A stretch of 8,794 nucleotides of DNA from an uncultured Phascolarctobacterium sp. GTDB lineage: Bacteria > Bacillota > Negativicutes > Acidaminococcales > Acidaminococcaceae. The stretch spans positions 1 through 8,794 of the forward strand of contig CASEGD010000036.1 of NCBI GenBank assembly GCA_949287345.1, in the 5' to 3' direction. Numbering within the stretch: the first letter of the stretch is position 1; every line of letters starts with the position of its first letter. This document shows, in pieces, positions 549 to 6,292 of this stretch. Both the position numbers and the translations under genes were made by a program. A model generated the notes under the pieces. The model had not been told where the DNA came from, ran no database searches, and saw nothing but the letters and a program-made list of their open reading frames with translations.

Positions 549-1466
549 CTAGTGCTTGCAGATTTCTTCGTAAACTTCCCGCGGCACGATGACAAACTGC
601 TGGTTGGTGGAGGAATCTACCAGAAATTCAAAGCCTTTTTGCTGCAATGCGGCTTTAATCTGCATGGCGGTGTCGATGCCCTGTTGGCAAACTTTGTAAT
701 ACAGACCGTTGGTGAACATGGCTTCAAACTGGATGCCGAGCAGCCTGCCTTTGGCAAGGATGGAACCGCACTGTTTTGCCAGCGGGATGAAGTCTTCTTT
801 AATGGCGGGGTTTAAAATAACGGCAGCTTCGCCGAACAGCAGGCCGCATTTGGTGCCGCCGATGTAGAATACATCGCACAAATTGGCAAGGTCGGCCATG
901 GTAAAATCGCAGGCGGGGCTGGTTAAGCCGTAGCCCAAACGCGCGCCGTCGATGTACAGATACAAACCGTACTGTTTGCAGACAGCGTACAGATCTTCCA
1001 GCTCCTGTTTGCTGTACAGCGTACCGATTTCCGTCGGCTGTGAGATGTACACCATTTTAGGCATTACAATGTGTTCGCGGCTGGGGTCGTGCAGGTATTT
1101 TTCCTGCTCTGCGGCAATCTGCGCCGCGGTAAGTTTGCCGTCAGTATCCGGCAGGGAAATTACTTTATGCCCGCCGCGTTCAATCGCGCCTGCTTCGTGC
1201 GTGTTGATGTGGCTGCGCACGGTGCCGTACACGCCGTGGAAGGGGCGCAGCGCAGCCGCGATAATGGTCAGGTTGGTCTGCGTGCCCGCCATTAAAAAGT
1301 AAACATCGGCGTCGGGGCGTCCGCATTCCTTCTGAATCAGCGCCTTCGCAGCCTCACAGTAAACGTCTTCGCCGTAGCCCGGCGTTTCTTCAAGGTTCGT
1401 GGCGCTCAAAGCCTCTAAAATTTCCGGCGTGCAGCCGGTGGTGTAGTCGCTGGTAAAATAATGCAT
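549..1466 (-). CDS. ltaE: Low-specificity L-threonine aldolase, C-terminally truncated
   Basis: PLP-dependent fold-type I enzyme that cleaves L-threonine or L-allo-threonine to glycine and acetaldehyde in the cytoplasm. Numbered from the start chosen here (305 residues): the N-terminal Y-F-x-S-D-Y-T-x-G block, the ring-stacking H90 in T-H-E-A-G, D173 and R176 in I-D-G-A-R-L-G, and the Schiff-base lysine K206 in G-G-T-K. Start choice: this ATG lies 7 bases behind AGAAGG, whereas an in-frame ATG six codons upstream (1484) overlaps the DedA stop (TAATG) and has no good ribosome site. The frame stops early at TAG 549-551; relatives are about 340 residues. About 25-30 residues of the small C-terminal domain are missing, and the last 13 residues survive beyond the stop. 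All catalytic residues seen are intact, but folding and activity are doubtful. Cotranscribed with the DedA gene. Confidence 0.85.
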   Translation of the reverse strand: MHYFTSDYTTGCTPEILEALSATNLEETPGYGEDVYCEAAKALIQKECGRPDADVYFLMAGTQTNLTIIAAALRPFHGVYGTVRSHINTHEAGAIERGGHKVISLPDTDGKLTAAQIAAEQEKYLHDPSREHIVMPKMVYISQPTEIGTLYSKQELEDLYAVCKQYGLYLYIDGARLGYGLTSPACDFTMADLANLCDVFYIGGTKCGLLFGEAAVILNPAIKEDFIPLAKQCGSILAKGRLLGIQFEAMFTNGLYYKVCQQGIDTAMQIKAALQQKGFEFLVDSSTNQQFVIVPREVYEEICKH

Positions 1467-1483
1467 GTCTAAACCTTCTTTCA

Positions 1484-2125
1484 TTAATTGCCGCGCCTGC
1501 TGCGGATAACTTCAAAAATAATCGGCGTCAGCGAAAAGAGCACGATGCCCATGGTAACGTACGAAAAATTTTGTTTGATGAACGGAATGTTGCCGAAAAA
1601 GTAGCCGCCGCCGAGGAAAATAAATACCCAGGTGCAGGCGCCGGTAACATTATAGGTGGCAAAGGTGCGGTAGTGCATGGTGCCGATGCCGGCCACAAAC
1701 GGCGCGAAGGTGCGCACAATCGGGGCAAAGCGCGCCAGAAAGATAGCTTTGTGCCCGTGCTTGGCGTAAAAATCTTCGGCTTTTTTTACGTATTCGGGCT
1801 TGATAAACCGCGAGTGCGCCTCAAGCATCTTATGCCCAAAGTGCTTGCCAATCTCGTAGTTGCAGGCATCGCCGCTAACGGCAGCCACTAAAAAGATAAC
1901 CGTCAAAAGCGGCAGGCTCAAGCCATCGGCGGTAGCCGCCAGAGCGCCGCAGGCAAACAAAAGCGAGTCGCCCGGCAGAAACGGCGTTACAACAAGCCCC
2001 GTTTCGCAAAAGACGATGATGAACAAAAAGGCGTAAATCCAGTGCCCGTAGGCTTCCATAACCACAGGCAGGTAACGGTCAAAGTGTAAAATAAAATCGG
2101 CAATATGGGAATAATAAGCTTCCAT
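1484..2125 (-). CDS. DedA family (SNARE-associated/VTT domain) membrane protein
   Basis: A 213-residue inner-membrane protein of the DedA family. Members are linked to undecaprenyl-phosphate or phospholipid translocation, membrane homeostasis and proton-dependent transport; the substrate here cannot be read from sequence. Family signatures: E41-T-G-L ... P-F-L-P-G-D-S (48-54), G-D-x-x-x-Y (85-90), and the hallmark R-F-A-P-I-V-R-T-F-A-P-F-V-A-G (132-146). Hydrophobic segments lie at about 30-46, 52-68, 72-86, 138-150, 160-178 and 186-204. The chosen ATG sits 5 bases behind AAGGAGG; the longer frame from TTG at 2143 would translate through that ribosome site, so it is rejected. The stop overlaps by one base an unused upstream ATG of the aldolase frame, indicating one transcript for both genes. 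Confidence 0.92.
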   Translation of the reverse strand: MEAYYSHIADFILHFDRYLPVVMEAYGHWIYAFLFIIVFCETGLVVTPFLPGDSLLFACGALAATADGLSLPLLTVIFLVAAVSGDACNYEIGKHFGHKMLEAHSRFIKPEYVKKAEDFYAKHGHKAIFLARFAPIVRTFAPFVAGIGTMHYRTFATYNVTGACTWVFIFLGGGYFFGNIPFIKQNFSYVTMGIVLFSLTPIIFEVIRSRRGN

Positions 2126-2154
2126 CGGCTCCTCCTTATACAAAAACTAACAAT

Positions 2155-2163
2155 ATTTTACCA
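2155..2163 (-). promoter_or_regulatory. Extended -10 promoter for the DedA-aldolase unit
   Basis: On the minus strand the element reads TGGTAAAAT, an extended -10 motif. Transcription would start near 2148, giving a leader of about 22 bases before the DedA start codon. I see no good -35 hexamer, as is common for extended -10 promoters. Confidence 0.55.
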
Positions 2164-2239
2164 CAAAGGCGCGCAAAAGAATAGAAAAAATAATTTTGTA
2201 AGCACTAACTAACTTTGGGCTGTATTAGCGCCCGTTATG

Positions 2240-2248
2240 TGTTATAAT
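2240..2248 (+). promoter_or_regulatory. Extended -10 promoter for map
   Basis: TGTTATAAT gives a consensus -10 with the TG extension. No convincing -35 is seen at 16-18 bases. The start would be near 2255, about 33 bases before the map ATG, and AAAGGGAG (2274-2281) is the ribosome site. It is divergent from the DedA promoter about 80 bases away. Confidence 0.65.
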
Positions 2249-2287
2249 ATCAGTGTTAAATTAAATCAGCGTTAAAGGGAGATTTAT

Positions 2288-3100
2288 ATGGATATTAAAC
2301 TGATACAGGAAAAAATTGCCGAATACAAAGCCAAAGGCTGTGAAGTGCCCGAGCCGGAAATGATTAAAACGCCGGAGCAGATTGAGGGCATCCGCGCGGC
2401 GGCGAAGATTAACAACGCCTGCCTTGATTTGATTGCTGAAAAAATTAAAACCGGCATGACGACTGAGGAAATTGACGCGCTGGCTTACGATTTTATCACC
2501 AAAAACGGCGGCATTCCCGCGTGCCTCGGTTTTTACGGCTTCCCCAAAAGCATCTGCACTTCAATAAACGACCAGGTTTGCCACGGCATTCCGGATAAGA
2601 CGGTGCTGAAAAGCGGCGACATTATCAACGTGGACGTTACGACGATTTATAACGGCTTTTACGCCGATGCTTCGCGTATGTTTATGATTGGCAAGGTCAG
2701 CAAGCCCAATCAGGATTTAGTGGCGATTACCAAAGAATGTATGCGCCGCGGCGTTGAAGCCTGCAAGCCGTGGGCCTTTATCGGCGATATCGGCGCTGCC
2801 ATTGCCCCGTTTGCGCGCAAGCATGGTTACAGCGTGGTGACGGAGTTCGGCGGGCACGGCGTCGGCGTGGATTTCCACGAAGAACCTTTTGTGTGCCACG
2901 ACAGCAAAAAGAATACCGGCATGCTGATGGTGCCGGGCATGGTATTTACGGTTGAGCCGATGATTAATGCCGGCCGCCGCAATGTGTTTATTGATTCTAC
3001 CAACGACTGGACGGTTTATACGCAGGATGGCAGCATGTCCGCCCAGTGGGAAAACACTGTGCTTATTACCGACACCGGTGTGGAAGTTCTGGCGTGGTAA
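2288..3100 (+). CDS. map: Type I methionine aminopeptidase
   Basis: Removes the initiator methionine from nascent proteins in the cytoplasm. The 270 residues show the full pita-bread metalloprotease signature: metal ligands D116 (I-N-V-D-V), D127 (Y-A-D-A-S-R), H190 (G-G-H-G-V-G), E223 (T-V-E-P-M) and E255 (Q-W-E-N-T-V), plus the substrate-site histidines H99 (V-C-H-G-I-P) and H197 (D-F-H-E-E-P). The catalytic domain starts near residue 25 (M-I-K-T-P-E-Q-I), so there is a charged N-terminal extension of about 24 residues compared with the Escherichia coli enzyme; no SEC-C zinc motif is seen in it. ATG is 6 bases behind GGGAG. There is no terminator directly after the stop; read-through would run into the short RNA at 3147 and end at the hairpin at 3191-3220. 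Confidence 0.96.
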   Translation: MDIKLIQEKIAEYKAKGCEVPEPEMIKTPEQIEGIRAAAKINNACLDLIAEKIKTGMTTEEIDALAYDFITKNGGIPACLGFYGFPKSICTSINDQVCHGIPDKTVLKSGDIINVDVTTIYNGFYADASRMFMIGKVSKPNQDLVAITKECMRRGVEACKPWAFIGDIGAAIAPFARKHGYSVVTEFGGHGVGVDFHEEPFVCHDSKKNTGMLMVPGMVFTVEPMINAGRRNVFIDSTNDWTVYTQDGSMSAQWENTVLITDTGVEVLAW

Positions 3101-3111
3101 AAGTGTTTTAT

Positions 3112-3140
3112 TTGACGTCGCTGAAAATTAGTGATACAAT
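3112..3140 (+). promoter_or_regulatory. Strong promoter for the short convergent RNA (putative antitoxin)
   Basis: TTGACG (3112-3117) and TACAAT (3135-3140) are separated by exactly 17 bases, the closest match to a sigma-70 consensus in the window. It begins 11 bases after the map stop. The predicted start is near 3147. No long open reading frame follows, only an RNA of about 75 bases ending at the hairpin at 3191-3220. Confidence 0.75.
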
Positions 3141-3152
3141 ATTTTTGGTAAG

Positions 3153-3179
3153 AAATGATACGAAGGAGTCAAGTGATAT
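3153..3179 (+). repeat. Two-part direct repeat, copy 1 (within short RNA)
   Basis: AAATGATACGAA (3153-3164), a 3-base spacer GGA, then GTCAAGTGA (3168-3176) followed by TAT. Copy 2 at 3336-3363 has the same two blocks with the unrelated 4-base spacer TTCC, then CAT. Two blocks of 12 and 9 identical bases in the same order, with different spacers, are far beyond chance in a 300-base region. Confidence 0.9.
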
Positions 3180-3190
3180 GATTCCAAACG

Positions 3191-3220
3191 AAAACCCCGG
3201 AGTGGCAGCTCCGGGGTTTT
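3191..3220. terminator. Bidirectional terminator shared by the two convergent small transcripts
   Basis: AAAACCCCGGAG (3191-3202) pairs perfectly with CTCCGGGGTTTT (3209-3220) around the 6-base loop TGGCAG. T runs exist on both strands. On the plus strand it ends the short RNA and any map read-through; on the minus strand it is the first terminator after the small peptide gene, ending a transcript of about 210 bases. The stem also gives the two RNAs a complementary, self-folding tail. Confidence 0.92.
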
Positions 3221-3272
3221 CTATTCCCATTTTACGCGGGAGGGCTTAACTCCGCAGGATAGTTACCGGTTG

Positions 3273-3356
3273 TTAATCGCCGTCTATCCATTTGATGATG
3301 TAGTGGCAGACTACACCAGCCGCGACGGCGATGATAAATGATACGAATTCCGTCAA
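3273..3356 (-). CDS. Small single-helix membrane peptide, putative type I toxin
   Basis: A 27-codon frame starting with TTG. The peptide has a short N-terminus (M-T-E-F-V-S), a hydrophobic stretch of about 16 residues (F-I-I-A-V-A-A-G-V-V-C-H-Y-I-I) and a polar end K-W-I-D-G-D: a single transmembrane helix with a Trp-containing charged tail, the general form of Fst-type toxins (about 30 residues, W-L plus charged tail). It lacks the proline found in many Fst peptides; similar tiny 'YxxKWLDG' peptides are, from memory, scattered and unannotated in Clostridia. The frame choice rests on codon content and on the G-rich ribosome site AAGGGGGGGG (3364-3373) 7 bases before TTG; the ATG at 3361-3363 opens an Arg-rich frame that looks spurious. 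Its own promoter, shared terminator and antisense repeats support a type I toxin. Toxicity is inferred. Confidence 0.62.
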   Translation of the reverse strand: MTEFVSFIIAVAAGVVCHYIIKWIDGD

Positions 3357-3363
3357 GTGACAT
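3336..3363 (+). repeat. Two-part direct repeat, copy 2 (over the peptide start codon)
   Basis: AAATGATACGAA (3336-3347), spacer TTCC, GTCAAGTGA (3352-3360), then CAT. Read on the minus strand, the 9-base block contains the TTG start codon (3354-3356) and borders the ribosome site; the 12-base block covers codons 4-7. Pairing with the short RNA would therefore mask translation start, leaving a small internal loop at the non-matching spacers. Confidence 0.9.
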
Positions 3364-3373
3364 CCCCCCCCTT
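3364..3373 (-). promoter_or_regulatory. G8 homopolymer ribosome binding site of the small peptide
   Basis: On the minus strand the Shine-Dalgarno region reads AAGGGGGGGG, an uninterrupted run of eight G (3364-3371 as C on the plus strand). It lies 7 bases from the TTG start. An upstream CCCC (complement of 3387-3390) could pair with it and hide it. Confidence 0.6.
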
Positions 3374-3403
3374 CCGTACCGGTTTAGGGGCGGTAACTTT
3401 AAT

Positions 3404-3412
3404 ATTATAGCA
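3404..3412 (-). promoter_or_regulatory. Extended -10 promoter of the small membrane peptide
   Basis: Minus strand TGCTATAAT, a consensus extended -10; only a weak AT-rich -35 region. Start near 3397 gives a leader of about 40 bases, and a total transcript of about 210 bases down to the hairpin at 3191-3220. The leader contains a 5-bp stem (TACCG 3377-3381 with CGGTA 3391-3395) whose loop exposes CCCC. Confidence 0.65.
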
Positions 3413-3438
3413 AATTTACAAAATATATAAAAGTGTGT

Positions 3439-3468
3439 TTTACTTTAAATACCGAATTATGTTAAAAT
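3439..3468 (+). promoter_or_regulatory. Candidate plus-strand promoter for a second short RNA
   Basis: TTTACT (3439-3444), 18 bases, then TAAAAT (3463-3468) preceded by TG (3460-3461), an extended -10. It is back to back with the small-peptide promoter. The only thing downstream before the hairpin at 3502-3542 is about 30 bases with a ribosome-site-like GGAAGG. Confidence 0.4.
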
Positions 3469-3474
3469 AAAAGT

Positions 3475-3542
3475 ACCTTTTCCGCTGGAAGGTGTGACAG
3501 TAAAACAGGACCGGAGCTTTTATCGGCTTCGGTCCTGTTTTT
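3475..3542 (+). ncRNA. Possible second short RNA, function unknown
   Basis: A predicted transcript of about 68 bases between the candidate promoter at 3439-3468 and the terminator at 3502-3542. Its 5' part can fold (ACCTT..CC with GGAAGGT, 3474-3493). GGAAGG precedes a GTG at 3494, whose frame runs into the terminator and then antisense to the DUF805 gene, so it is not a credible gene. It resembles the short RNA at 3147 in layout (promoter, ribosome-site-like motif, hairpin) but shares no clear repeat with the peptide mRNA. It could be an orphan antitoxin-type RNA or a chance pairing of promoter and terminator. Confidence 0.28.
3502..3542. terminator. Intrinsic terminator of the ttcA-like/DUF805 unit (bidirectional)
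   Basis: AAAACAGGACCG (3502-3513) pairs with CGGTCCTGTTTT (3530-3541); the stem extends inward through AGC (3515-3517) with GCT (3526-3528) around an 8-base loop. It lies 10 bases past the DUF805 stop on the minus strand; the T run on the plus strand would also stop the candidate short RNA starting near 3475. Confidence 0.88.
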
Positions 3543-3551
3543 GTAATTTAA

Positions 3552-4229
3552 TTATTTTGTTTCTTCTTTTTTATCCGCAGCTTCCTGCGCTGCTTTTTCT
3601 GCTTCCTGCTGGGCCTTCATTTCCATTTTGGCTTCGTAGCGGTCGTATTCGTCCCAATCGGGGTGCGCTTCGGCAATCCGGCGGTCCAGTTCCTCATCGG
3701 CGCGTTTGGCAGCTTCGGCAGCTTCCTTGCGTGCTTTGGCTTCGGCTTTCTGCTCGGCTTTGGTTTTCTTCTTTTCTTTTTCCGGTTCGGCTAAAAGGTC
3801 TTCGCCGTATTTATTGGGGCCTCTGGTGCCGCGGAAGAAGATTAAGAAGATGTTGAACATCTGGGCGATGTAGAACAAAATGCTTGCAGCCAGGTCAATG
3901 GCGCTGTTGCCGGTGTTAACGTTACTTAACATCGCACCGGTGCCTACCAGCATCCACCAGCCGCTCAGGTTCATATCGTGCAGGCGGCGCACACCCAGCG
4001 AAACGCTGGCGATAATCAGCGGAATGTAATAAACCCAGAAGGTCAGCGTTTTGCGCACGTTTTCGGCAAAATGCGCCGGGTCTTGCTTAAGGTGCTGTTC
4101 GGCGTTGATAACGATTAAAACAAAAAATATACTGAGCGCGCCCAGCATCATCAGGCGCATAAAAAACGGTTTGCGGTTCAGGCGGCCGCTGAAACAAAAA
4201 TAGCTTTGCTTAAACTCCTTGACTGTCAT
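3552..4229 (-). CDS. DUF805 family membrane protein with long charged C-terminal tail
   Basis: A 225-residue inner-membrane protein. Family signatures of DUF805: F-S-G-R-L-N-R (13-19), R-R-L-H-D-M-N-L-S-G-W-W (81-92) and G-T-R-G-P-N-K-Y-G-E-D (134-144). Hydrophobic helices lie at about 24-42, 62-80, 90-104 and 112-132. The core ends near 147, where most family members end; here a further tail of nearly 80 residues follows, almost all Lys, Glu, Ala, Arg and Gln (K-E-K-K-K-T-K-A-E-Q..., A-E-A-K-A-R-K-E-A), predicted as a long cytoplasmic helix or coiled coil. The family function is unknown. GGAGG lies 7 bases before the ATG. It follows the TtcA-like gene by 55 bases without a terminator, so it is probably cotranscribed with it. 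The charged tail suggests a protein or nucleic-acid contact, but that is inference. Confidence 0.88.
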   Translation of the reverse strand: MTVKEFKQSYFCFSGRLNRKPFFMRLMMLGALSIFFVLIVINAEQHLKQDPAHFAENVRKTLTFWVYYIPLIIASVSLGVRRLHDMNLSGWWMLVGTGAMLSNVNTGNSAIDLAASILFYIAQMFNIFLIFFRGTRGPNKYGEDLLAEPEKEKKKTKAEQKAEAKARKEAAEAAKRADEELDRRIAEAHPDWDEYDRYEAKMEMKAQQEAEKAAQEAADKKEETK

Positions 4230-4284
4230 TAAAAAACCTCCGGTCAGAATGTCATATAAAATTTATTATTCGCCGCAAGCGGTG

Positions 4285-5085
4285 TTATTCCTGCCTGCGG
4301 CTGCGCTTTTGCTGCCAAAAAGTGTGGAATTTGTCTGCCAGTTCCTGCTTGGTGCATTTGGCAGGCCAAAGCTCCTGCGGCGCGGTGCGCATGGCTGCCG
4401 CCAGATGGTCGTACGCTTCGGCGTTGAACTTCTGCAAGGCGGCGATAAGCTCCTTTGCTTCCTGCCTTTTGGTATGCCCGTCGTAAGGGCAGGGGTTTTT
4501 CAGCGGCGTTAAGCCGAGCTGCTGCACCATGCTGATGATTTCCGCCTCGCGGTAATACAAAAGCGGGCGTATCAGTGTCAGCCCCGTGCGGCTAAGCGGT
4601 GTTACCGGCAAAAAGGTTTTCAGCTGCCCGCTGGCGGCAAGGTTTAAAAAGAAGGTTTCCACAGCGTCGTCGTGGTGGTGCGCCCATGCTACCTTGTTAA
4701 AGCCAAGCTCCAGCGCCGTGCGGTTGGTGGCGGCGCGGCGGAAGTAAGCGCAGGTAAAGCACGGCGTGTTGGTGCGTTTGTTCCACGCTTCGGTAACGTC
4801 AACCTTGCTGCTGTAATGCTTAAGCCCGTACTGCGCGCAGAAGCTTTCCAGCTCATCTTTGGGAAAGTCCGGGCTGAACATCGTATCGACGGTGTAGCAC
4901 GCCAAATCAAACTTAAACGGAGCGTACTGCTGCAATTCTGCCAGCGCAGCGGTTAAAAACATGCTGTCCTTACCGCCGCTCAGGCCGATTAGCACGCGGT
5001 CGCCGTCCCTTAACATATCAAATTCAATTACGCAGCGCCACAGCTTGCCAAGCAAATCTGCGGGCACAAAAGGTTTGCGGCTCAT
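4285..5085 (-). CDS. TtcA-like PP-loop tRNA 2-thiolation protein
   Basis: A 266-residue cytoplasmic adenylating enzyme of the TtcA/TilS PP-loop superfamily. TtcA thiolates cytidine 32 of tRNAs using ATP activation and a [4Fe-4S] cluster. Seen here: the PP-loop S-G-G-K-D-S (36-41), the cluster-binding pair C109-F-T-C112 followed by F-R-R, H-H-H-D-D-A-V-E-T (136-144), and the third cluster cysteine C199 in N-P-C-P-Y-D. This three-cysteine pattern separates TtcA from TilS, which lacks it. It is shorter than E. coli TtcA (about 310), as are many anaerobe members. AAGGAG lies 5 bases before the ATG. The exact tRNA target cannot be read from sequence, so other TtcA-family roles remain possible. First gene of a two-gene unit with the DUF805 protein. 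Confidence 0.85.
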   Translation of the reverse strand: MSRKPFVPADLLGKLWRCVIEFDMLRDGDRVLIGLSGGKDSMFLTAALAELQQYAPFKFDLACYTVDTMFSPDFPKDELESFCAQYGLKHYSSKVDVTEAWNKRTNTPCFTCAYFRRAATNRTALELGFNKVAWAHHHDDAVETFFLNLAASGQLKTFLPVTPLSRTGLTLIRPLLYYREAEIISMVQQLGLTPLKNPCPYDGHTKRQEAKELIAALQKFNAEAYDHLAAAMRTAPQELWPAKCTKQELADKFHTFWQQKRSRRQE

Positions 5086-5112
5086 GGCATCTCCTTAAAA
5101 AATCATGCTGCT

Positions 5113-5121
5113 ATTATACCA
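5113..5121 (-). promoter_or_regulatory. Extended -10 promoter of the TtcA-like gene
   Basis: Minus strand TGGTATAAT, a perfect extended -10, placed between the upstream terminator (5135-5163) and the ribosome site. Start near 5106, leader about 21 bases. Its -35 region falls in the T-rich end of the terminator, with no clear hexamer. Confidence 0.68.
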
Positions 5122-5134
5122 TAACGCGCATAAA

Positions 5135-5163
5135 AAAGCACCTGCCGTTTCAGCAGGTGCTTT
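5135..5163. terminator. Intrinsic terminator of the aldo/keto reductase gene
   Basis: AAAGCACCTGC (5135-5145) and GCAGGTGCTTT (5153-5163) form a perfect 11-bp stem with a 7-base loop. On the minus strand it is followed by a T6 run (A at 5132-5137), 10 bases past the reductase stop. Its core is nearly identical to that of the terminator at 469-498. Confidence 0.92.
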
Positions 5164-5173
5164 GTGTTTTGTT

Positions 5174-6292
5174 TCAGCCCAGTGTTTCGCTTACTTTTAC
5201 CAGCTCATCGCGTATTTTAATATGCTGCGGGCAGGCTGCCTCGCACGCGCCGCACTTAATGCACTCGGCGGCTTTTTTCAGGCCGTGGCCTTTAACCAGC
5301 CAGTTTTCCTGGTGCTTCGCCGCGCCCAAATCCTTATACAGCGTGTAATAATTCATCGCTGTAAAGCTGCCGCTGATGCCGATATGCATCGGGCAGACCT
5401 TGGCGCAGTAATTGCAGGTGGTGCAGGGGATGAGCGGGATGCGCGCCAGTTCTTCCTGCGCTTGTTTCAGCGTCGCTTCTTCGTCAGCGCTTAAACCGTT
5501 AAAGCCCTTCATGTAGCTCAAATTGTCCTGCATTTGTTCAACGCTGCTCATGCCGCTTAAAACGGTAATAATGCCGTCAAGATGTGCGGCAAAGCGGATA
5601 GCCCAACTGGCGACGGACATTTCCGGTTCGGCGTCCTTCAAAATTTTCTGCACGCTTTCCGGCGGGTTGGCCAGCATGCCGCCCTTAACCGGCTCCATAA
5701 TGATGACGGGCTTATTGTGCTTACGCGCAACTTCGTAGCAGCGGCGCGACTGCACTGCCGGGTAATCCCAGTCGGCGTAGTTAATTTGCAGCTGCACAAA
5801 TTCCATTTCCGGGTGCGCCGTTAAAATAGCGTCCAGCTCCTCCGGCGTGGAGTGGAACGAAAAACCTACATGCTTAATCAGCCCCGCGGCTTTCTTTTCC
5901 TGCACAAAGCTCCACATGTCAAAGTCGTCAAAATATTTGGTACGGCTTTCGCCGAGGTTATGCAAAAGGTAAAAATCAAAATAGCCTGCGCCCGTCTGTT
6001 TCAGGCTGGTTTCAAACTGGCTGACTGCTTCTTCGCGCGTTTTGCAGTTAATCCACGCGGCATTTTTGGTTGCCAGCTGGAATTTTTCGCGCGGGTAACG
6101 CTCAACCAGCGCTTGCCTGATAGCGTCTTCGCTGCCGGGGTAAGCCCAGGCCGTATCAAAATAAGTAAAGCCGGCTTCCAAAAACATATCAACCATTTGT
6201 TTGGTTTGCTCAATATCGATAGCGCCGTCTTTCTGCGGCAGTCGCATCAGCCCAAAGCCCAGCTTTTTAATGTCTTCGCCAAGATATGCCAT
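5174..6292 (-). CDS. Aldo/keto reductase with C-terminal 2x[4Fe-4S] ferredoxin domain
   Basis: A 372-residue predicted oxidoreductase. Residues 1 to about 280 form an aldo/keto reductase barrel with the catalytic tetrad D46, Y51, K76 and H111 (F-D-T-A-W-A-Y, A-T-K-N, L-L-H-N), an early G-F-G-L-M-R-L-P strand and the I-I-M-E-P-V-K-G-G-M block (197-206) of this subfamily. The C-terminal part carries two cluster motifs: C290-x2-C293-x2-C296-x3-C300-P and C344-x2-C347-x2-C350-x3-C354-P, as in bacterial ferredoxins. This architecture is common in anaerobes; substrate and electron partner are unknown, and coupling of NAD(P)H chemistry to ferredoxin is inference. GAAGGGA lies 6 bases before the ATG. 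Monocistronic, with its own promoter (6324-6352) and terminator (5135-5163). Confidence 0.93.
   Translation of the reverse strand: MAYLGEDIKKLGFGLMRLPQKDGAIDIEQTKQMVDMFLEAGFTYFDTAWAYPGSEDAIRQALVERYPREKFQLATKNAAWINCKTREEAVSQFETSLKQTGAGYFDFYLLHNLGESRTKYFDDFDMWSFVQEKKAAGLIKHVGFSFHSTPEELDAILTAHPEMEFVQLQINYADWDYPAVQSRRCYEVARKHNKPVIIMEPVKGGMLANPPESVQKILKDAEPEMSVASWAIRFAAHLDGIITVLSGMSSVEQMQDNLSYMKGFNGLSADEEATLKQAQEELARIPLIPCTTCNYCAKVCPMHIGISGSFTAMNYYTLYKDLGAAKHQENWLVKGHGLKKAAECIKCGACEAACPQHIKIRDELVKVSETLG

What the first reader, a model, noticed from the sequence alone, without database searches (positions are those of the whole stretch)
3112..3412. Candidate par/Fst-like type I toxin-antitoxin locus with an unrecognised toxin peptide
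Seen directly: a 27-codon single-helix membrane peptide on the minus strand with its own extended -10 promoter (3404-3412); a convergent, near-consensus promoter (3112-3140) driving a short plus-strand RNA; one perfect bidirectional terminator between them (3191-3220); and a two-part direct repeat (12 + 9 bases) shared by the short RNA and the peptide's translation start. Established: the pAD1 par locus has this plan (convergent RNA I and RNA II, shared terminator, repeats DRa and DRb mediating antisense control of Fst), with RNAs of about 210 and 65 bases; here the predicted sizes are about 210 and 75. Inference: this is a chromosomal par-like system whose toxin differs from known Fst peptides (no conserved proline, very short tail).
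Basis: partly seen in the sequence, partly recalled or inferred. Interest (0 to 1): 0.93.

Follow-up and report, generated by a model that had tools for sequence, protein, structure and literature searches.

The report
RNA-silenced toxin peptide in gut bacterium
A gut bacterium's chromosome carries a 27-codon reading frame, likely for a membrane toxin, facing a short RNA gene that is predicted to silence it; most of the related loci examined keep their own matching repeats, so this is likely a largely unannotated branch of a known class of toxin-antitoxin systems.

Summary
In detail: a 27-codon TTG-start ORF (3356-3273, minus), convergent promoter-like sites, a 13-bp perfect stem (3190-3221) and a two-part direct repeat (12/12, 11/12).

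It looks like a pAD1 par-type system. In 39 non-redundant relatives found by RNA model, the repeat at the start codon matches its own antitoxin copy (mean 32.4) far better than others (13.3); own is best in 37 of 39. The genome (inferred Phascolarctobacterium) has five such loci with predicted separate specificities. The peptide belongs to a "...YYICKWLD..." clade found in 140 of 380 class genomes, on plasmids and on phages including inoviruses. It is related to Fst/Ldr by profile, but it misses the Fst models and has A at the usual P/D/S/T motif position.

Unexpected: in 22 of 182 testable (overlapping) loci the repeats lie upstream, so the antitoxin is predicted to be divergent; several of these toxin mRNAs carry a hairpin complementary to the antitoxin terminator loop.

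Transcription, toxicity and silencing are untested.

The parts
3112..3140 (+). predicted antitoxin promoter, TTGACG-17-TACAAT
   Evidence: consensus scan; an extended -10 matching at least 7 of 8 at this side in 36 of 39 non-redundant loci vs 10% of shuffles
3147..3224 (+). predicted short antitoxin RNA (about 78 nt)
   Evidence: ends inferred from the -10 and the stem; folds with z = -7.75; transcription not tested
3153..3164 (+). direct repeat 1, antitoxin copy (AAATGATACGAA)
3168..3179 (+). direct repeat 2, antitoxin copy (GTCAAGTGATAT)
3190..3221 (.). predicted shared bidirectional terminator, 13-bp perfect stem, 6-nt loop
   Evidence: not listed by the terminator scan (short T run); perfect stem of at least 8 bp in 35 of 39 non-redundant loci vs 0.3% of shuffles
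3181..3397 (-). predicted toxin mRNA (about 210 nt)
   Evidence: RF02442 match 3397-3181, E 4.7e-6, below its gathering score; 3397-3190 folds with z = -3.33
3273..3356 (-). predicted toxin ORF, 27 aa, one hydrophobic stretch
   Evidence: 93% identical peptide in a sister species, 9 DNA differences at codon positions 2/0/7
3336..3347 (+). direct repeat 1, toxin copy (codons 4-7 of the ORF on the other strand)
3352..3363 (+). direct repeat 2, toxin copy, overlapping the TTG start
3364..3373 (-). Shine-Dalgarno run AAGGGGGGGG, 7 nt before the TTG
   Evidence: read; partly paired in the fold; unpaired probability 0.15 vs 0.33 with shuffled leader
3391..3397 (-). 5' upstream-helix arm (GUUACCG)
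   Evidence: pairs with 3262-3268 in the minimum-energy fold
3262..3268 (-). partner arm of the upstream helix (CGGUAAC)
3404..3431 (-). predicted toxin promoter, TTTATA-16-TATAAT with TG
   Evidence: extended -10 matching at least 7 of 8 in 30 of 39 non-redundant loci vs 7.5% of shuffles
2288..3100 (+). flank: methionine aminopeptidase-like gene (Peptidase_M24)
3552..4229 (-). flank: DUF805 protein gene

Best explanation
A TTG-start frame for a 27-residue peptide with one hydrophobic stretch and a convergent predicted short RNA gene share one perfect stem and a two-part direct repeat, and they likely form a par-type (type I) toxin-antitoxin pair in which the short RNA is predicted to cover the peptide's start codon and block its translation. 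Shown in sequence: the ORF, the repeats and the stem. Predicted: both promoters and the two leader structures. Inferred: the RNAs first touch at their complementary terminator loops and then zip at the two repeats; until then the leader hairpin hides the Shine-Dalgarno run and the upstream helix protects the mRNA 5' end; if the short RNA is lost, the peptide is made and damages the membrane or a membrane target. The five loci of this genome are predicted to act separately, because each antitoxin pairs best with its own mRNA. The window copy sits between map and a DUF805 gene and is absent from that spot in two sister species, so it was likely gained or lost as a unit.
For: Anatomy. Locus-specific repeats: 39 non-redundant loci from 24 genomes, own mean 32.4 vs cross 13.3, own strictly best in 37 of 39, no permutation of 2000 above 16.6; predicted duplex -41.3 vs -21.1 kcal/mol, cognate best in 33 of 39. 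Peptide-selected set of named genomes: 65 of 76 testable loci with a downstream repeat; viral contigs and phage records 47 of 47 testable, of 49 given. Five own-genome loci: cognate duplexes -35.8 to -46.3, non-cognate -13.8 to -30.6 kcal/mol. Upstream helix: own complement 4.97 nt vs 4.04 cross, none of 2000 permutations as high. Peptide: 66 of 70 RF02442 loci encode one, 65 of them of the KWLD kind or a close variant and one (L027) of the PXXXG kind. Relation to Fst/Ldr: sole solved-structure sequence hit LdrD, E 0.027; hhalign with an Fst alignment 94.6%, and without the shared row score 19.5 vs at most 14.4 in 200 column permutations; NF033608 (Fst) weakly matches 14 of 50 clade members at E up to 1. 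Pneumococcal F66 is a Northern-detected 239-nt RNA (PMC3395615, passages) whose Rfam consensus encodes a CKWLDG peptide.
Against: No transcript or toxicity data exist here. The window peptide fails Pfam and NCBIfam Fst models and has A where P is essential for Fst and Lpt toxicity (review PMC7472228, section read). The terminator scan did not list the shared stem. The Shine-Dalgarno hiding signal is weak across the family (below shuffled leaders in 25 of 39). No YUNR U-turn in the terminator loop (CUGCCA, read). 6 of 65 testable RF02442 loci show no clear repeat on either side; one locus keeps repeats with a broken frame (L029). In the own genome, locus C29 separates only narrowly by alignment score (21 own vs 18). 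The hhalign support falls to 47-50% once the PXXXG-type row is removed.
Confidence: 0.85

Rival explanations
1. The regulation is real but the peptide is not a toxin: a small membrane regulator (for example of a transporter) under antisense control.
For: The P residue needed for Fst and Lpt toxicity (PMC7472228) is S in 111 of 132 and A in 8 of 132 clade peptides, and the own-genome copies sit beside varied, apparently unrelated genes (by eye). Roles of chromosomal par loci are unsolved (PMC7472228).
Against: D/S/TXXXG clades are counted in the toxin superfamily (PMC7472228); similar modules lie on small plasmids and phages, inoviruses included, as expected of an addiction module; five copies with separate predicted specificities in one genome fit toxins better than one regulator.
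Confidence: 0.13
2. The longer RNA is a regulatory sRNA (as Rfam files SpF66), and the ORF is incidental.
For: RF02442 is catalogued as an sRNA and matches the locus.
Against: Loci under 75% identical in DNA still encode the peptide, and it recurs in Clostridia; window vs sister species differs at codon positions 2/0/7; a purine run with GG precedes 65 of 66 ORFs, though starts were chosen to favour one.
Confidence: 0.03
3. Chance ORF among ordinary promoters and a terminator.
For: Short ORFs and promoter-like sites are common; the window alone is one case.
Against: The permutation and shuffle tests over 39 non-redundant loci and two further loci sets.
Confidence: 0.01

Closest known systems
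par locus of Enterococcus faecalis plasmid pAD1 (Fst, RNA I/RNA II) and its chromosomal homologues
   Same: Convergent RNAs, shared bidirectional terminator, two direct repeats over the translation start, upstream helix and leader hairpin (features from PMC7472228 sections; counterparts here). Three annotated Fst loci that I fetched show the same peptide register and layout by eye.
   Different: A instead of P in the helix motif, CHYIIKW instead of the Fst pattern, DGD tail, TTG start, no U-turn loop; host inferred to be a Negativicute; no call by the Fst models.
Ldr toxins of enterobacteria (LdrD, PDB 5lbj)
   Same: Only solved-structure sequence found with the clade profile, aligned in register from the motif to the tryptophan.
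   Different: Ldr regulation is hok/sok-like (PMC7472228); no shared-terminator layout (recalled).
SpF66 / F66 RNA of Streptococcus pneumoniae (Rfam RF02442)
   Same: Model matches the predicted toxin mRNA end to end; its printed consensus encodes MSLILELVLTIIADVIAGIILYFVCKWLDGKE, with the DXXXG motif that PMC7472228 gives for one pneumococcal clade. F66 (D39 1972860-1973100, PMC12323649) lies near srf-27 (1973172-1973570, coordinates marked uncertain), annotated as an Fst-family antitoxin (PMC6212727).
   Different: The window scores 32.5, below the gathering score 42; D at the motif position instead of A.
Clostridioides difficile type I toxins (NF047374)
   Same: Short membrane peptides, convergent antitoxin (PMC6563280, passages); weak profile similarity for 25 of 50 clade members.
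   Different: Best of ten members scanned singly scores 23.3 against a cut-off of 60; 50-53 aa for the first three toxins and a long antisense overlap, not two short repeats.

Membership tests
par/Fst type I toxin-antitoxin | convergent promoters for a ~200-230-nt toxin mRNA and a short antitoxin RNA | tested here: met
   sequence level only; family-wide -10 elements; transcription not testable
par/Fst type I toxin-antitoxin | shared bidirectional intrinsic terminator | tested here: met
   perfect 13-bp stem with AAAA/TTTT outer arms and stems in 35 of 39 non-redundant loci; the T run is short and the scan did not list it
par/Fst type I toxin-antitoxin | two direct repeats (DRa, DRb) shared by the RNAs and covering the toxin start | tested here: met
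par/Fst type I toxin-antitoxin | 5' upstream helix in the toxin mRNA | tested here: met
   7 bp in the fold, 8-nt exact complement and family permutation test
par/Fst type I toxin-antitoxin | leader stem-loop hiding the Shine-Dalgarno sequence | tested here: inconclusive
   present in the window fold; weak across the family, 25 of 39; anti-SD complement 4.97 nt vs 3.97 in shuffled and 4.28 in other leaders
par/Fst type I toxin-antitoxin | YUNR U-turn in the terminator loop (reported as not universal, PMC7472228) | tested here: not met
   loop CUGCCA, read
Fst/Ldr peptide superfamily | one TM helix, then a conserved tryptophan and a charged C-terminus | tested here: met
   W23 followed by only IDGD; K, W and D at least 90% conserved in 50 peptides
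Fst/Ldr peptide superfamily | P/D/S/TXXXG motif (majority of members, PMC7472228) | tested here: not met
   AXXXG in the window; clade: S at that position in 111 of 132; last position S 50, G 49, N 31
Fst/Ldr peptide superfamily | passes curated models (Pfam PF13955 or PF13940, NCBIfam NF033608) | tested here: not met
   no hit for the window; sister locus L027 passes NF033608, 28.5 vs 26
Fst/Ldr peptide superfamily | profile-level homology | tested here: met
   with controls
type I toxin-antitoxin | peptide toxic when over-expressed; RNA antitoxin prevents it | not testable with these tools
   no expression data or bench work
Rfam RF02442 SpF66 | gathering score 42 | tested here: not met
   32.5 bits over the full model
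C. difficile type I toxin (NF047374) | curated cut-off 60 | tested here: not met
   no hit for the window; best of ten relatives scanned singly 23.3

The most novel reading that the evidence does not exclude
The window is one of a large, mostly unannotated clade of RNA-silenced toxins (CKWLD clade) that exists in two gene orders. Most loci are convergent like par, but in many Selenomonadaceae-type loci the antitoxin gene lies upstream and runs divergently; there the shared terminator has split in two, the antitoxin keeping its own terminator and the toxin mRNA carrying a separate hairpin whose loop covaries to kiss it. The same modules ride on tiny plasmids and filamentous inoviruses, likely as addiction cassettes.
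Probability: 0.6. Interest if true: 0.75.

Novelty: new member of a known kind. Interest (0 to 1): 0.6.

Why it matters
Type I toxins are short and varied, and the curated models miss this one. The RNA layout plus locus-specific repeats exposes a clade whose peptide profile matches 140 of 380 genomes of the class, with five copies of separate predicted specificity in one genome. That gives a natural set of antisense pairs for testing how two short repeats set specificity. The divergent loci would make the role of the terminator kissing loop directly testable, because there it would be separated from toxin-mRNA termination. It also suggests that the Rfam 'sRNA' SpF66 is better described as a toxin mRNA.

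Tried and rejected
Ideas dropped: (1) that the ORF is incidental to an sRNA: peptide conservation speaks against it. (2) That the peptide is a holin or a C. difficile-type toxin: only weak hits, those with curated cut-offs below them. (3) That the window copy lies on a prophage or plasmid: the ten neighbouring genes scanned have ordinary families, and a distant-DNA search of plasmids gave one 48-base match. (4) That the leader-like stretch 3432-3541 is a decayed second locus: no informative relative; left open. (5) Search of the 5.8-billion protein set: not possible, query under 40 aa. (6) Structure prediction was not tried: the window peptide is under 30 aa.

Counts to read with care. Sets A, B and C overlap (for example L107/L276 and L114/L291 give the same peptide and repeats), so the 182 testable loci are not independent. 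Set C (42 loci) was chosen by me from the listed part, largely from one family (f15), so its 15 divergent of 42 is no prevalence. The 70 loci are 70 of 76 RF02442 matches; six had no fetched DNA; one search used stricter filters. In one search, L151 'both' is an indexing artefact of mine and L126 'both' is a T-rich match. In one search, 6 of 22 divergent loci gave no callable antitoxin terminator and were left out. Of the 13 non-redundant rest, 8 have a loop complement of 6-7 nt: in L088, L275, L276, L286 and L291 it lies in a called toxin hairpin, in L293 in the hairpin predicted, in L263 in a hairpin that looks like the toxin's own terminator, and in L268 in none; the other 5 have 4-5 nt, the chance level. 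Plasmid and phage protein searches were run at E up to 10, so their record counts are not counts of true relatives.

Papers: PMC7472228, outline and four sections read; PMC6212727, PMC10903887, PMC6563280, PMC3395615, PMC12323649, PMC4387999, PMC7699646 and PMC8309996 seen as passages; others only as listings. PMC2887945 was not held. I saw no paper on this clade in Negativicutes or on a divergent par layout in the listings; subscription papers and the T1TAdb database itself were not searched.

Full report
OBSERVATION. The minus strand 3356-3273 reads LTEFVSFIIAVAAGVVCHYIIKWIDGD* with a TTG start behind AAGGGGGGGG. On the plus strand, AAATGATACGAA occurs at 3153-3164 and 3336-3347, and GTCAAGTGATAT at 3168-3179 matches 3352-3363 in 11 of 12. 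A perfect 13-bp inverted repeat lies between the two genes, 3190-3221; the terminator scan did not list it, because its T run is short. The promoter scan finds TTGACG-17-TACAAT at 3112-3140 (+) and TTTATA-16-TATAAT at 3431-3404 (-). The predicted toxin mRNA folds better than all 200 shuffles (z -3.33), with the 5' end paired to CGGUAAC after the stop codon and the leader CCCCU paired to part of the Shine-Dalgarno run. The short RNA folds at z -7.75.

RELATIVES. Rfam RF02442 (SpF66, a pneumococcal 'sRNA') matches 3397-3181 over its whole length at E 4.7e-6 but below its gathering score. It matches 35 of 200 genomes of the class (9 over the cut-off) and 0 of 14 control genomes. Of 76 matches I held DNA for 70. 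Of these 70, 66 encode a short hydrophobic peptide: 65 with the (Y/H)Y(I/V)CKWLD end or a close variant, and L027 of the PXXXG kind. Of the other four, L015 encodes it without a standard start codon, L029 has a broken frame, L031 reads as a PXXXG-type peptide on a short match, and L036 matched only at the terminator. RF02442's own consensus encodes a CKWLDG peptide, and F66 was seen on Northern blots as a 239-nt RNA (PMC3395615, passages).

LOCUS-SPECIFIC REPEATS. If the short RNA silences the peptide, the repeat around the start codon should match its own partner better than those of other loci. In 39 non-redundant loci (under 75% identity, 24 genomes) the own score averages 32.4 and the cross score 13.3; own is strictly best in 37 of 39; no permutation of 2000 exceeds 16.6; predicted duplex energies are -41.3 vs -21.1 kcal/mol and the cognate is best in 33 of 39. 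Loci picked by the peptide motif alone in named genomes, a search that does not use the RNA, show a downstream repeat in 65 of 76 testable cases. Viral contigs and phage records show a repeat above the 99th percentile of shuffles in 47 of 47 testable loci, 49 given. The upstream helix is also locus-specific (4.97 vs 4.04 nt). Hiding of the Shine-Dalgarno run is only weakly supported family-wide (25 of 39; 4.97 vs 3.97 nt in shuffled and 4.28 in other leaders).

OWN GENOME. A profile of 50 peptides (A1) finds five loci in the window's genome at E 1.7e-12 or better (a sixth hit at E 0.37 holds a stop). All five have a perfect stem of 12-14 bp and the repeat; each toxin start pairs best with its own antitoxin (-35.8 to -46.3 vs -13.8 to -30.6 kcal/mol), although locus C29 separates only narrowly by alignment score (21 vs 18). 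ORFs near the other four look varied and unrelated by eye; one lies near three tRNA genes. The host is inferred to be Phascolarctobacterium, because a same-genus genome carries a contig of the length and match place of Phascolarctobacterium sp. ET69 contig 2.

SITE. The window copy lies between map and DUF805. The species G005 has it beside map too, 87% identical. G001 and G003 have only about 70-100 bases with a terminator there, and G002 has some 4.4 kb of other genes. The spot thus looks like a place of gain and loss; the direction was not resolved.

SPREAD. Profile A1 matches 140 of 380 genomes of the class at E 1e-6 or better, including 6 of 6 of the window's genus with 3-6 copies. The motif scan of named genomes returns Lachnospiraceae, Ruminococcaceae, Selenomonas and Veillonella among others. 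Relatives occur on plasmids (three fetched, repeats scoring 36, 40 and 24 against 99th percentiles of 20-22) and phages. The best phage match to the window peptide is an inovirus, bajarodino virus 68 (55.6%, E 8e-5); it carries SD, ORF, a terminator-like hairpin and a repeat scoring 42 vs a 99th percentile of 20. Two more inoviruses show the repeat (L187, L188).

RELATION TO FST. The clade profile's only match among 177,635 solved-structure sequences is LdrD, E 0.027, in register from the motif to the tryptophan. hhalign with four Fst-type peptides gives 94.6%. One row was shared; without it the probability is 47.4% and the score 19.5, against at most 14.4 in 200 column permutations; the reversed full profile scores 12.0. 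The window gets no call from Pfam or NCBIfam Fst models; across 50 members Ldr_toxin is weakly matched by 10, Fst_toxin by 1 and NF033608 by 14, all at E up to 1. Sister locus L027 with the PXXXG motif passes NF033608 in the same layout. Across 132 clade peptides the residue four before the motif's G/S/N is S in 111, A in 8 and P in 2; the window has A. So it works like par by most sequence tests I could run and is related to the Fst/Ldr superfamily, but it does not meet the curated models or the usual motif.

LIMITS. No expression, toxicity or silencing data were available; many genomes are MAGs; repeats, promoters and stems are computed features.

Noticed in passing
L085, L088, L107, L114, L122, L263, L269, L274-L276, L286, L291-L293: CKWLD-type loci whose direct repeats lie upstream of the toxin promoter: antitoxin predicted divergent, with a toxin-mRNA hairpin complementary to the antitoxin terminator loop in several.
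   Followed up: partly
Rfam RF02442 consensus; window 3397-3181: The consensus of the pneumococcal 'sRNA' SpF66/F66 encodes a 32-residue CKWLDG peptide behind a purine-rich AGGAGGC run; likely an Fst-type toxin mRNA rather than a pure sRNA.
   Followed up: partly
L181 2040-2135; L187 around 4761; L188 around 1001: Three inovirus (filamentous phage) records from mouse feces carry the peptide with par-like repeats; the place is annotated only with an opposite-strand CDS (L181, L188) or with none (L187).
   Followed up: partly
L177 about 900-5250 (G002): The map-DUF805 site that holds the toxin locus in the window holds about 4.4 kb of other genes in G002, including an ORF with an ALFSGCG stretch that I recall as typical of cytosine methyltransferases.
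   Followed up: no
L015 1501-1732; L029 1501-1713: Two relatives keep strong repeats but lack a standard start codon (L015) or have a broken frame (L029).
   Followed up: partly
window 3432-3541: A promoter-like site, a short leader with CUUUUCCGCUGGAAGG resembling the leaders of the sister toxin loci, then at once a strong terminator; could be a decayed locus or an unrelated small RNA. No informative relatives.
   Followed up: partly
L035 and L062 (G179:C2, 5885 bases): The same toxin peptide and repeats occur twice, 4550 bases apart, on a 5.9-kb contig, as if a circular plasmid of about 4.5 kb had been assembled past its end.
   Followed up: no
window 3100-3147: No terminator-like site was listed between map and the antitoxin promoter, so map read-through could also end at the shared stem and carry the antitoxin sequence.
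   Followed up: no
A1 peptides: 25 of 50 clade peptides match PHROG 738, a phage protein family without a stated function (best E 5.7e-6).
   Followed up: no
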